Origin: Caprimulgus europaeus | Lineage: Eukaryota > Chordata > Aves > Caprimulgiformes > Caprimulgidae | Assembly: GCA_907165065.1 (NCBI GenBank) | Contig: OU015525.1 | Location: 42,204,037-42,268,036, forward strand | Direction of reading: 5' to 3' | DNA length: 64,000 bases | Shown: piece after piece, positions 2,777-8,700 of the stretch | How the letters are laid out: each line of letters begins with the position of its first letter | How positions within the stretch are numbered: position 1 is the stretch's first letter | Notes under the pieces: generated by a model | Databases searched by the model: none | What the model saw: the letters and a program-made list of their open reading frames with translations, nothing else | What the model was told of the DNA's origin: nothing | Program-made: the position numbers and the translations under genes

Positions 2777-5700
2777 GTACTTAATTCTGCATGACTATAC
2801 ACATAATCTCTCTCAGTATAAATTAACATGAAACTATTTGGTCCAAATTTATCGTATTAGAAACAGCTTCCACATTCTTTTCTGAAATACACAGAGTTGT
2901 ACAAGAAATGGCGTATTGTTAGGGAAGTAAACCCCGCTGTTGCTGCCATTAAAAAAAGATGAAAGCCACAGGTCAAGATATGGCCAGACTAGTTGTTGTT
3001 TATTCCCTCTCTCTCATCTGTCAGATACTCGTCAAGCCCATTTCTTCTATATGTTTCTGGTTTTAGTGAATCTGTTTCCAGCATCCATTTTCAAATTGAA
3101 ATTTAACCTTTAACCATTTGTCCTGATGCAAGCTGAAAACTTTTTGGTTTACAGTTTGCAAAGCTACATTAATTGATTGATCGTGACCATGGTACCACTT
3201 TAGTACAGTAATGCAATGCATTCTCTGCAGACTGAATGTTAGTGTGATGTGTCTTCACTGTTTTTTTAAGTGAAGAAAGTTCCATGGGAGGGGGGGGGGG
3301 AAGATTTCGTGTTAATATAGAGAATTGAGAGTTAAAACTTATGCCACATAATGGAATGAAATACCTGCTGTGTCACTATTGTGTGGAATACTCTGGTGAA
3401 TCTTCTAACGAACTTTTAAAATTTTATTGACTCTAGAGCTTTAAGTAGCTTTAAAAAGGTGGCCTGTGTTCTTCTTTTTTTTTTTTTAGATATCATCAAA
3501 TGGATAAAGCAAAAGACCCATGTTCTACACTGGAACAGAGTTATTTGAAGATGGAGAAAAAACATTAACATTAGTTTTCTTTTTGCCTTTTTTTAGCAGT
3601 TCAAGTAGCAATTCCAGCAGCAGGAAGGAGGAGGGTAGTGCTCCCTCAAATTCTTTCATCCCTTCTTTTCCCCGAGCTCCAAGCACTTCGGATTCCGTAA
3701 GAGTGAAATGTAGAGAAATGCTTTCTGCAGCTCTGAGAACAGGAGGTGAGCTTTGTAGAGTATATTTTCGAGTTTAACTATTTCTCTCTTCTCTATTTCA
3801 GTCCTTCCCACTTTATTCTTCTCCTGCCCTGTAAGGTACAATAAACCCTGTTGATGTCTCTTTGTGTGTATATAACCATAGACCAGTTCACCCAAGTTGC
3901 AAGCAATGAGTAACCTTGACATCATGGGAATGTATTGAAATACATTTTTGTTACTGATGATACAATACATTTTGTGGCTTCTGTTCATCTGATATCTTGC
4001 CTACAGTGGACCTTCTTTTCAAGAAGGTTATTGCCTCCTTAATGCCACATTTAAATCTTTTTTTGGAAGCTACTATATTTTTTTTGGTCTTATCTCTGAC
4101 TGAGAGTGCCACTATATACATGCTTGCCTTTCTTAGACCAGAGATCCTGTGGGCCTTTAGATTTTGGTTTTTGAAGGCTGCCTTTCTGTTTTGATTTAAT
4201 CTTGGAAGTTTCATTGAGAGAGTCACAGTAAGAGAGTCTTGCATTGCTCTGTATTTATGCCTTTTGGACATCTGTAAATTCCTTGACTGTTTTGGGGTTT
4301 TTTCTTTTTCCCCTTCCTGCACACTTGGGTATCTTTAAACTGACAAGTTGAATGATGTGCTAGATAAGGAGCAAACTAGAAATTGAATTCTTCAGAATCA
4401 CTGGAATTTTTCCTTGTTGGTCCTTCTTTTCTGCCTGAACTTATGATCCAGCTCCTGTTCCTTTGTTCTTAGTGTAACTTGACCCAGTGTAACCAGACTT
4501 CTGAATCATCCCTTTTTACCCTCTTCACTCTCTTATTCTTTCTTTCAATTCATGTATATTCAGATACAGACAGTAATTAAAGCTGATAAAGACCATGAAT
4601 TTGTGGTCCTCTGGATATGCAGTTCATAGAGTTCTAAAATAACTTGTGACCAGAAAGTTGCATATAACATCTTAGTATTCATAATTCTGTGTAGTCTTAA
4701 TTTCAACTGAATTTTGAGACTGGACGCCAGTCTCAAAAAATAAGGTTATTTTCTGGTTTTATGACCTCCTGCATGAGGTCAAAGGAGAAGTGGTATTTAG
4801 ATTACTCATTGAAGTACACTCATGTTAAATGAGAAGGAGGAAAACATACATCTAATTTATCCTAAGTTATCTTGGAAAGACAGCTGTCTTTAAGTAAGAG
4901 TTTTGGTCAGAAAAAGTAAACAATTATCTTGTGATATTTTATGTCAAGTGTTGTATTGTCTTCAAGTTTGCTATGGTTTGTTTCTTCGAATTTACATGTT
5001 TTATGACATATCTCTACTTTGCATTTTTAAAAAAATATCTAATAGTATTGTTTCTGTTATTTAATTACTATGTTTCTAATAAATATTTCTCTTGTATGCA
5101 TGGGAAACATTAATTGCTTATGTTTGTATTGTGTGGACTGAATGAATTGATGAAACACAATACAAAATGTTTTCTTTTTATAATAGTTAATTCTGTGCAT
5201 ATATGTTGTGGACATGAATATTTGCCAAGCCTATTAGAATATTTAAGATTGTTCTGTATGGCAGAGTTTTTTTGTTACTACTTGTGTTTGCAACTAGATG
5301 TCAGAATTTTTGCTTTTGTGAAAGATTTAGGGTTGTTCTAATTTTTCTGAACTCCCATTGCTCTTCATTTCACTTTTTCTGTTCTTCCAAGAAATAAGTT
5401 AACAAAGTTTTGAAAGGTTAAATATACAGTAAATTAAACATTCTTATATAAAATGAAAATTCACTGCAGCTGTTTCATAATTTGCTGAGTTTCAGAGTTT
5501 CAAATGGGCTCTCAGCGATGTTGGACACTGATGAGATTGTCAGGTTCTAATATTTTAATGTTTTTTTCTCCTTAGATGATTACATTGCTATTGGTGCTGA
5601 TGAGGAAGAGCTGGGTTCTCAGATTGAAGAAGATATCCTTTGTTGTACATCTCTGTGCTCTAGAACAAGAGTATTTTTAAAGGCTTTGATAATGTTAAAA

Positions 5701-8700
5701 TTAATTAACTTGATCTAGATATTTAATATTTAAAAATTTCATTTAAAACAAAAATATCAAACTCTGTTCAGCATATCAGTGCAGAAATTTAGTGTTTAAA
5801 AAACCAGCACAACCTAAATTATTTTCCTTAAAACATGTAGGAATGTGTGTGGGTAGGTGAGTGTGTGTGAGTTTTTTTCAGTGCAGTATGTTTTCCTTGC
5901 AGCAGCAATATTATATCTTTCTGAAGCATTCTGACATAAAATGCTGGGCTCTTCTATGTGATTTTAAAATCTTTTCTTAACAGTTTTAATATTTTTGTAA
6001 TGTCTTCAATTTTCTACAACTTTTTTTCTAAATGAATTTGGAATTTTCAAAAGGATTGTGCTGGTAGCAGTGTTCGAATAGTTACAGGGCAGAGGTCTGG
6101 GCTTTTTTTATTTTAGGTTTGTTGTGGGGTTGTTTTTTTTTTTTTTTGTGAGGGTGTTCTTAAGCATAGAAACAGTCTAAGCTTCATTATTCTAACTTGC
6201 TAATGTCATTCAGTAATTGCAGTCAGCCAGTACTACTGTTATCTGTTGCAAACCTGGTTTAAAATTCTGTTACTGAGCTGCCAGTGTTAGAATATTTGGT
6301 TTAGAAATCAATTGATCCTCAGGATGAGATCAAGGAACTGGACAGAAATTTATGGGTTACTTTTCACAATTTCAGTTGAGATCCTGCTACCCAAAAGTTA
6401 ATGCTTCACTGACCATGTGCTAAACTATGATTAGGCTTCAGAAGGACATGAAGTCTGCTCTGTTGAACAGGAAAGTAACGGTTGGTTGAATCGGGGGAAA
6501 GACTTGATTAACAACGGAGAACAGCTTTAGAAAAGTTGCCTGAAAAAATCAGTCCTTTTTTAGTGTTCGGTTTTACTTGGTAATGTTTTGTTCCTTAAAT
6601 CCAAAGCACCTATTTTTCAAGAATTAAAAAACACTGATATGAAATACAAAAATAGGGTACGAAGTAGAATAGCAAATCTCAAGGATGCAAAGAATCCTAA
6701 CCTAAGGAAAAATGTGTTATGTGGGAACATTCCTCCGGACAAGTTTGCCAAAATGACAGCAGAGGTGAGTAAAGCACAGGTCTTGAACTATTTCACTATT
6801 GGTCTTACATCCTGGCCTGTATTTATTATCTCTAAAAATAATTCCTGTAAGCTGCCTCACTTTTGAAAGACCGTGGCTTTTTTGTGGCTTGCACAGTCTG
6901 AATTTCAGGGTTGTGTTGGGACAGCTGGGAAAGTGATGTCTGTTAATGGTTCCTAAATATCCTGTAAGTCAGAAAACAAGTAAGCTGTCACATGTAAATT
7001 TCCTGAAACATGGTGTGTTGTGTGGTTTTTAAAAGGCCACATGATATATCAGTGATAGTTTTTTTTAAGTTTAGGAAAATGTAAATACATGTGGCTAGTG
7101 ACTCCAAGCTGCTCCTTTCTGGATATGTGTTACCCTGTCTTGCCATTTGTTTTCCAAACGCTAACCTCTGCTGTTATAGTCCTACGCAAGGTGCAGCGCT
7201 ATGGTTTTAAAGATCAGTCCTCTCCTGTTGGCATTTTCAGTGTCTGTTTAACGCTTATCTCAAATTTGACAAGAATACTTCAAGTGATTTTGAAGGAAAC
7301 TCTTAACAATAAATAGAAAAAGCCATAAATGATAGGGGAAAGAAGCTAGGAGAATTTCCCTTTAAATAAAATTTAATTTATGTTATTGAAAGAACATTTT
7401 GGACACTTGAATGGAAATTCCCATTCACATGCTTGCTGTCTTTACAAATCAAAATAAATCTATGAAGTCATTTTATGGGAGAGAAAAATGAAAGCACGGT
7501 TAACATCTGGTTTCAGGTTTGTAGTTCTTCTTGTATGTGTTGTTTTTTACCCCTCCAAATCAGGTATAAAGAAGTATCATGGACACTGAAAGAAATTAAG
7601 TTTGTGATCAAGTAATGAAAATCATAATTAGCTTTATTCTAAAGGATTTTTTTTTTTCTTTCTATAGCTTTATGTAAAGGTTAGGGCAAACAGCCTGATA
7701 AAGGAATGTGTAAAGAAAAGTAGATTTTATCTTCTGGATGTATTTTGAGTTTTTTCATTCTATTTGTGTGTATGTGCATATCTACAAACATACATTCTGT
7801 GTTATCCAGTGCCCATTCTTTGTTTTAATTAATATGAATTCTGGTAACATATGGTAAATTATGGCTATACTGTATTTCTCAGTACAAATATAGAAATGGT
7901 CAAAATAGTGTAATTTTTTCCTACAGTAATGTTCTGTAGGTCACTGAGATAATCACACCAGGATCTGTCCTAGGGAGAAGATTTTTTTCATCCTCTCTGG
8001 AGAACTTCCAAATCTTTCTCTACCTTGTCTCTGTATTACCTTTTGGAACTTCAGAAATGCATTTGCATAGAAAAGTTTCTAGATGTTTGATGTTGTAACT
8101 TTTACTGATTTTCTTTTTTTTTTTTCCCCCCCCCCCCATCTGCAGGGGGGGAAAAAATAAACTTTTTGTAGCTTCTGTGCTATGAAATATCCCAACTTAA
8201 GTCTTGTAAAATTAAAAATATGTAGAATTACCTTACCCTTCAGTAGAGTTGTTGTTTATGGATTCTAAACAAGAAATGGTACAGGCTCACACAGTGGTAA
8301 CTAGTAAACTCTATCTGCTCTTTGCCCATAACAGGAAATGGCGAGTGATGAGCTGAAAGAAATGCGCAAAAATCTGACCAAAGAAGCTATCAGAGAGCAC
8401 CAGATGGCTAAAACAGGGGGTACCCAGACTGATCTGTTTACATGTGGCAAGTGCAAAAAGAAGAACTGTACCTACACCCAGGTACGTGGTTATTCAGACT
8501 CTTTGTTTTCCTTTTTCAAAGTTTAAGTCCTGTATAAAGATTGTTAGAGGAAGTTTTAATTACAAAATGAACTTTTAACAAAATGCTAACAAATTAGAAA
8601 ATACATGAAGATAGCTTGGTCTACTTAAGTGTGCTTACGTAAAGAATGTTTGTTGTGTTAATTTAGCAAAGATTTCATGTAAATTCAAGCTGAGTATCAA

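What the first reader, a model, noticed from the sequence alone, without database searches (positions are those of the whole stretch)
5633..6609. AT-AC minor-spliceosome intron in TCEA1
The donor ATATCCTTT, branch-like TTCCTTAAA 12 bases from the exon, and an AC terminus all fit a U12-type AT-AC intron, and only these ends restore the conserved IEE-A-IFQE junction. AT-AC introns are a tiny fraction of vertebrate introns. Annotation pipelines that demand GT-AG would mis-set these exon edges or call a frameshift, for example starting at the upstream ATG at 6588. TFIIS output would thereby depend on the minor spliceosome.
Basis: partly seen in the sequence, partly recalled or inferred. Interest (0 to 1): 0.75.

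Follow-up and report, generated by a model that had tools for sequence, protein, structure and literature searches.

The report
AT-AC minor-spliceosome intron in TFIIS gene
A bird-like gene for the transcription factor TFIIS (TCEA1) contains one of the rare introns removed by the minor spliceosome; it looks real and shared across vertebrates, so probably not new, but deposited proteins often get its edges wrong.

Summary
The intron at 5633-6609 (977 nt) starts ATATCCTTT, has TTCCTTAAA with a candidate branch A 11 nt before its 3' end, and ends AC. Among 125 x 160 junctions tried, only 5632/6610 gives the IEE-A-IFQELK join. TCEA1 chains of solved structures (IEEAIYQE) and five bird database proteins share that join. 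A strict scan finds no other complete U12-like intron in the 64 kb.

New comparative evidence: wrongly joined database proteins preserve the intron ends. Of 28 retrieved rows that run past this exon edge, 27 continue as D-I-L, N-I-L or Y-I-L, the readings of G|, A| or T|ATATCCT. They come from 24 species, from a shark to birds and mammals. The joins that this window's in-frame GT-AG pairs would give occur in deposited Dicrurus, Indicator, Anas and Hirundo proteins.

Corrections: 6588 is TTG, not ATG; in-frame GT-AG pairs exist (GT5642/AG6606, +4 residues), so no frameshift need be called. Dependence of TFIIS output on the minor spliceosome is inference. A standard, old U12-type AT-AC intron: real, ordinary, probably already catalogued (recalled, not confirmed in a paper).

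The parts
2689..2776 (+). TCEA1 coding exon (first one assembled inside the window; linker region)
   Evidence: assembled reading frame
3597..3745 (+). TCEA1 coding exon (acceptor could also be 3 nt later, exon start 3600)
5576..5632 (+). TCEA1 exon just upstream of the AT-AC intron, (D)[18 protein letters not shown], ends in phase 1
   Evidence: match to solved TCEA1 chains
5633..6609 (+). U12-type AT-AC intron, 977 nt
5633..5641 (+). U12-type 5' splice site ATATCCTTT
6591..6599 (+). U12-type branch site TTCCTTAAA, candidate branch A 6598 (or 6597), 11 nt before the last intron base
6608..6609 (+). AC 3' terminus
6610..6764 (+). TCEA1 exon downstream of the AT-AC intron, -(A)[19 protein letters not shown]...TAE, TFIIS central domain
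8335..8481 (+). TCEA1 coding exon
9361..9432 (+). TCEA1 coding exon (zinc ribbon)
10499..10507 (+). last TCEA1 codons, Phe-Cys-stop
5642..5643 (+). in-frame cryptic GT that, with AG 6605-6606, would give EEDILSPIFQE; this join is seen in deposited proteins of some other birds
6605..6606 (+). AG 3 nt upstream of the AC end; would add Pro if used with the AT donor

Best explanation
Window 5633-6609 is a phase-1 U12-type (minor spliceosome) AT-AC intron in TCEA1, the gene for Pol II elongation factor TFIIS, inside the central domain (at Ala175 of the 301-residue PDB chain 5iy6_U). Most likely U11, then U6atac, read ATATCCTTT, U12 pairs with TTCCTTAA and bulges an A at 6597/6598, and the AC 11 nt downstream is the 3' splice site. 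Shown: the sequence elements, their spacing, the protein join, and peptide readings in other jawed vertebrates that are consistent with the same ends. Inferred: which snRNAs act here, and that a splicing failure leaves an intron whose in-frame stop (5716) falls 28 codons past the exon, removing most of the central domain and the zinc ribbon.
For: Exact elements at the homology-defined boundary. Unique junction for AIFQELK among 125 x 160 pairs. TCEA1 chains in the PDB align across the join with no gap (organism not shown there, human recalled). Of 197 retrieved proteins, 150 fit the pattern of the ungapped join, 27 read through as D/N/Y-I-L, and 20 fit neither. The readthrough residue tracks the spliced residue of relatives: Ala (G|CN) with Asp (G|AT) in birds, mammals and a frog; Cys (T|GY) with Tyr (T|AT) in bony fish; Ile (A|TH) with Asn (A|AT) in shark TCEA2-like proteins. 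That is what a fixed ATATCCT donor behind a varying last exon base predicts. From the 3' side, 34 of the 47 rows not matching the ungapped join carry Pro directly before [IV][FYH]Q, which reads the last intron base as C; the residue before that Pro is A, S, L, V or I in 34 of 34, all of which have a codon ending in A, as an AC end needs. In 16 of these 34, [FV][LF][KN] stands three codons before the Pro, the reading of a branch site at the same distance as in the window; a 17th, P0010, also matches but I set it aside because its FLK looks like donor-side sequence. The +Pro AT-AG product is seen in 0 of 197.
Against: No RNA reads were available. The base after the branch A is A, not the usual C (consensus recalled). 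The pyrimidine content of the last 20 nt (11) is only a little below that of the five GT-AG introns (13-17). The comparison is at protein level and only consistent with the nucleotides. Searches used queries that contain a readthrough, so their samples are enriched for it. Of the 47 rows not matching the join, 13 lack Pro before [IV][FYH]Q. Among these, P0107 (Pelobates, T-V-F-Q) and P0163-P0166 (Chiloscyllium, I-V-F-Q) cannot be read as a C end from the peptide. P0134 (Conger, R-I-F-Q) can. P0132 (Myotis, labelled low quality) has a different insertion. P0172 (a beetle) looks correctly joined and merely escaped the pattern. P0077, P0109, P0120, P0158 and P0190 lack the start of the exon. Whether the 17 remaining Pro rows (34 less 16, less P0010) reach back to the branch region cannot be told.
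Confidence: 0.96

Rival explanations
1. The intron is really GT-AG: GT5642 (or GT5645) with AG6606, giving TFIIS with 4 or 5 extra residues (EEDILSPIFQE / EEDILCSPIFQE), removed by the major spliceosome.
For: In frame. The 4-residue form is in deposited proteins of Dicrurus, Indicator and Anas, and in a rodent form in Neotoma (P0123); the 5-residue form in Hirundo.
Against: The inserted residues are the U12 donor itself read as D-I-L. Proteins of five other birds (P0001-P0004, P0133), two of them standing for clusters of 46 and 314 members, have the ungapped join. TCEA1 chains in the PDB have no insert. By eye both GT sites fit the major-class donor poorly (TTT|GTTGTA, GTT|GTACAT); no score was computed.
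Confidence: 0.02
2. AT-AG intron using AG6606, adding one proline (IEEAPIFQE).
For: In frame; the AG is 3 nt upstream of the AC.
Against: 0 of 197 retrieved proteins carry EEAP[IV]. The branch A would be only 8 nt from the 3' end, against an optimum of 11-13 nt, and AT-AG is described as disfavoured (PMC3584512, passages seen).
Confidence: 0.02
3. AT-AC intron of the major spliceosome (U2-type AT-AC).
For: AT-AC ends alone do not define the class (PMC3584512, passage); PMC8280824 mentions 85 major AT-AC introns or related subtypes (passage).
Against: Positions +3 to +9 (ATCCTTT) fit U12 and not a U1-type donor (recalled consensus). A U12-type branch site lies at the right distance. The last 20 nt hold 11 pyrimidines against 13-17 in the five GT-AG introns of the same gene, a small difference.
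Confidence: 0.01

Closest known systems
U12-type AT-AC (A-type) minor introns of vertebrates
   Same: donor ATATCCTTT, branch TTCCTTAA, 11-nt spacing, AC end, no clear pyrimidine tract; the other five introns of this gene in the window are GT-AG
   Different: base after the branch A is A instead of the usual C (consensus recalled)
Xenopus TFIIS gene intron with unusual splice signals (Plant, Hair and Morgan, Nucleic Acids Res 1996; recalled only; not held under the DOI tried)
   Same: same gene family, AT-AC intron as I recall it
   Different: not checked; the position could not be compared
Orthologous TCEA1 intron in other vertebrates
   Same: same protein join at Ala175 of PDB chain 5iy6_U; readthrough peptides consistent with an ATATCCT donor in 12 birds, 6 mammals, 1 frog, 3 bony fishes, and in TCEA2-like proteins of 1 shark and 1 chimaera
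   Different: no genomic DNA of those species was available here

Membership tests
U12-type intron | 5' splice site RTATCCTTT | tested here: met
   ATATCCTTT at 5633-5641, 9 of 9
U12-type intron | branch site like TTCCTTRAC | tested here: met
   TTCCTTAAA at 6591-6599, 8 of 9; last base A for C; consensus recalled
U12-type intron | branch A to 3' end 11-13 nt | tested here: met
   11 nt from 6598 to 6609; optimum from PMC3584512, passage
U12-type intron | no distinct polypyrimidine tract | tested here: met
   5 pyrimidines of 11 after the branch A; 11 of 20 in the last 20 nt against 17, 15, 13, 13 and 13 in five sister introns, so the contrast is modest
AT-AC subtype | AT and AC termini at the true exon join | tested here: met
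   unique junction for the conserved peptide
U12-type intron | removal depends on U11/U12/U4atac/U6atac | not testable with these tools
   no RNA data; the genome search on the window's own genome gave no answer, and that search was for TFIIS genes, not snRNAs
U2-type AT-AC intron | U1-like donor (ATAAG-type; recalled) | tested here: not met
   +3 to +6 is ATCC
TCEA1 (TFIIS) | TFIIS central domain and zinc ribbon | tested here: met
   PF07500 E 1.7e-37, PF01096 E 2e-19; best PDB matches are labelled TCEA1

The most novel reading that the evidence does not exclude
The TFIIS AT-AC intron is a conserved control point that ties Pol II elongation to the A-type (CENATAC-dependent) branch of minor splicing. 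When minor splicing falters, either the intron is retained and the message is lost to an in-frame stop 28 codons in, or the in-frame cryptic GT5642/AG6606 pair rescues a TFIIS with a 4-residue insert in its central domain.
Probability: 0.1. Interest if true: 0.55.

Novelty: already known. Interest (0 to 1): 0.2.

Why it matters
As a single intron it is ordinary: most vertebrate minor introns are conserved (94% of human ones in chicken, as cited in PMC10639083, passage seen), and bird proteins with the right join are already in the databases. Two things have wider use. First, some deposited bird and mammal TFIIS proteins seem to carry false residues copied from a U12 donor, an error that can be found and corrected. 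Second, such errors work as protein-level traces of U12 splice sites: D/N/Y-I-L after an exon edge reads out a conserved ATATCCT donor without genomic DNA, and could be searched for in other minor-intron genes.

Tried and rejected
Literature: no paper in the library holds TCEA1 with 'U12-type' or 'minor intron'. TCEA1 with 'U12' gave 2 papers and TFIIS with 'U12' gave 11; by title and abstract start neither list looks relevant, and none of these papers was opened. TFIIS with 'AT-AC intron' gave none; TFIIS with 'AT-AC' gave 4, also not relevant by title and abstract start, and not opened. Two broader searches (56 papers, 494 papers; one listed each) showed no listed paper with TCEA or TCEA1. 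TCEA1 with 'minor spliceosome' as a pair was not searched. A phrase search for the recalled Xenopus paper gave none, and it is not held under the DOI I tried. 'Already known' therefore rests on recall of intron catalogues and on the correctly joined database proteins, not on a paper read here. I saw passages only of PMC2846911, PMC3584512, PMC8280824 and PMC10639083. Rfam at gathering threshold found nothing in the window. The two other RTATCCTT sites (27577 minus, 32937 plus) make no complete U12-like intron. GT-AG, AT-AG and U2-type AT-AC readings were considered and rejected (see rivals).

Sampling limits: one search listed 120 of 5727 matches: 97 with the expected join, 15 reading on as DIL or YIL, 8 neither. 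The 55 proteins added split 32, 11 and 12, and the 22 added split 21, 1 and 0; both those queries contained a readthrough, so their rows are enriched for it. The 27-of-28 figure is over all 197 distinct proteins. Of the 20 that fit neither pattern, P0132 is the one contrary row that runs past the edge, P0172 looks correctly joined, and the other 18 use other donors or begin downstream. The exon ends used for two neighbouring introns were off by one or two bases and were corrected; the AT-AC intron was unaffected.
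Full report
WHAT IS THERE. The plus strand from 2689 to 10507 holds the 3' part of TCEA1 (TFIIS). The assembled frame gives the TFIIS central domain and zinc ribbon and ends in ...NRWKFC-stop. Six introns separate the seven coding segments assembled in the window. Five are GT-AG. The sixth, 5633-6609, is AT-AC: gaag|ATATCCTTT ... TTCCTTAAATCCAAAGCAC|cta.

IS IT MORE THAN CHANCE. Each motif alone is expected about four times in the 64 kb. The exon edge, however, is fixed by protein homology and not by the motifs. A script tried every pair of ends in 125 x 160 positions. 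Only 5632/6610 gives the 7-residue bridge AIFQELK between EELGSQIEE and [10 protein letters not shown]. TCEA1 chains from solved structures align without a gap across this point (IEEAIYQEIRNTD; human by recall). A strict scan of both strands for complete U12-like introns finds this one only.

CLASS. [quoted passage not shown] Here the donor is 9 of 9, the branch site 8 of 9 (consensus recalled), and the distance 11 nt. The last 20 nt hold 11 pyrimidines, against 13-17 in the five neighbouring introns, a modest contrast. AT-AC ends alone would not prove the class, but +3 to +9 (ATCCTTT) does not fit a U1-type donor.

COMPARATIVE EVIDENCE. No vertebrate DNA collection was on hand, so I used proteins. 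Three searches gave 197 distinct proteins. By script, 150 fit the ungapped join, 27 read past the exon edge as D-I-L (19), N-I-L (5) or Y-I-L (3), and 20 fit neither pattern. One further row that runs past the edge, P0132 from Myotis, labelled low quality, has a different insertion; hence 27 of 28. The 27 rows come from 24 species: 12 birds, 6 mammals, 1 frog, 3 bony fishes, 1 shark (4 rows) and 1 chimaera. The first residue changes in step with the spliced residue of relatives. Tetrapod TCEA1 rows splice to Ala (G|CN) and read on as Asp (G|AT). Bony fishes mostly splice to Cys (T|GY) and the three read on as Tyr (T|AT). Shark TCEA2-like proteins splice to Ile (A|TH) and read on as Asn (A|AT). 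A fixed intron start AT-ATC-CT explains all three; this is consistent with, not proof of, each nucleotide.

From the other side, 47 rows do not match the ungapped join. Of these, 34 carry Pro directly before [IV][FYH]Q, so the last intron base reads as C, and the residue before the Pro (A 15, S 9, L 4, V 3, I 3) can in each case be a codon ending in A. The 13 others are told under evidence against: two species (five rows) cannot be read as a C end, one row can, five rows lack the start of the exon, one is a different insertion and one is in fact correctly joined. In 16 of the 34, [FV][LF][KN] sits three codons before that Pro, in birds, in marsupial and deer proteins, and in unnamed records; P0010 also matches but probably from donor-side sequence. 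The shark and chimaera rows look like the TCEA2 paralogue, which suggests the intron predates the split of the TFIIS paralogues; this is an inference from two species.

ANNOTATION ERRORS. The in-frame pair GT5642/AG6606 of this window would give EEDILSPIFQE. That peptide is in the deposited Dicrurus, Indicator and Anas proteins (Anas differs by one residue further on, EFK for ELK), and with Tyr for Phe in Neotoma. GT5645/AG6606 would give EEDILCSPIFQE, as in the Hirundo protein. So such annotations insert residues rather than report a frameshift; I did not check how they were made. Five other birds have the right join (P0001-P0004 and P0133). The specific example in the finding, an ATG at 6588, is wrong: 6588 is TTG, and the ATG at 6583 is out of frame.

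HOW IT WORKS. By established knowledge of U12-type introns, U11 and then U6atac recognise the donor, U12 the branch site, and the AC end is cut so that the Ala codon at position 175 of the solved chain is completed. Retention would add 28 residues and then a stop at 5716, upstream of most of the central domain and the zinc ribbon. Such a message would probably be degraded and, if translated, inactive; this is inferred. Depletion of CENATAC affected 92% of A-type minor introns in human cells (PMC8280824, passages). TCEA1 is not named in the passages I saw, and the term TCEA has no occurrence in that main text.

VERDICT. A genuine, typical and old U12-type AT-AC intron; the finding is right in substance, with small errors of detail. 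I judge it already known: bird database proteins carry the right join, and I recall the intron from catalogues and from a 1996 Xenopus TFIIS paper, although neither could be opened here.

Noticed in passing
17250-18918, minus strand: Two open frames on the minus strand match the two halves of an RGS domain (PF00615), and a cysteine-rich stretch lies at 23897-24193 minus; probably RGS20, convergent with TCEA1 (the gene name and gene order are recalled).
   Followed up: partly
35700-38700: Dense overlapping long open frames rich in Ala, Gly, Pro and Arg on both strands and short GC-rich tandem repeats, i.e. a CpG-island-like stretch, perhaps a promoter region; base composition was not computed.
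   Followed up: no
3594-3599: Tandem acceptor (TAGCAG) of the TCEA1 exon at 3597: AG at 3596 or 3599 would give five or four serines in the linker.
   Followed up: no
window 10499-10507: The last coding exon carries only Phe-Cys-stop (TTCTGTTAG); the Hirundo database protein P0121 does not end in it and runs on.
   Followed up: no
proteins P0163-P0166 (Chiloscyllium punctatum) and P0190 (Callorhinchus milii): TCEA2-like proteins with an N-I-L readthrough at the same junction, suggesting the U12-type intron is shared by TFIIS paralogues.
   Followed up: partly
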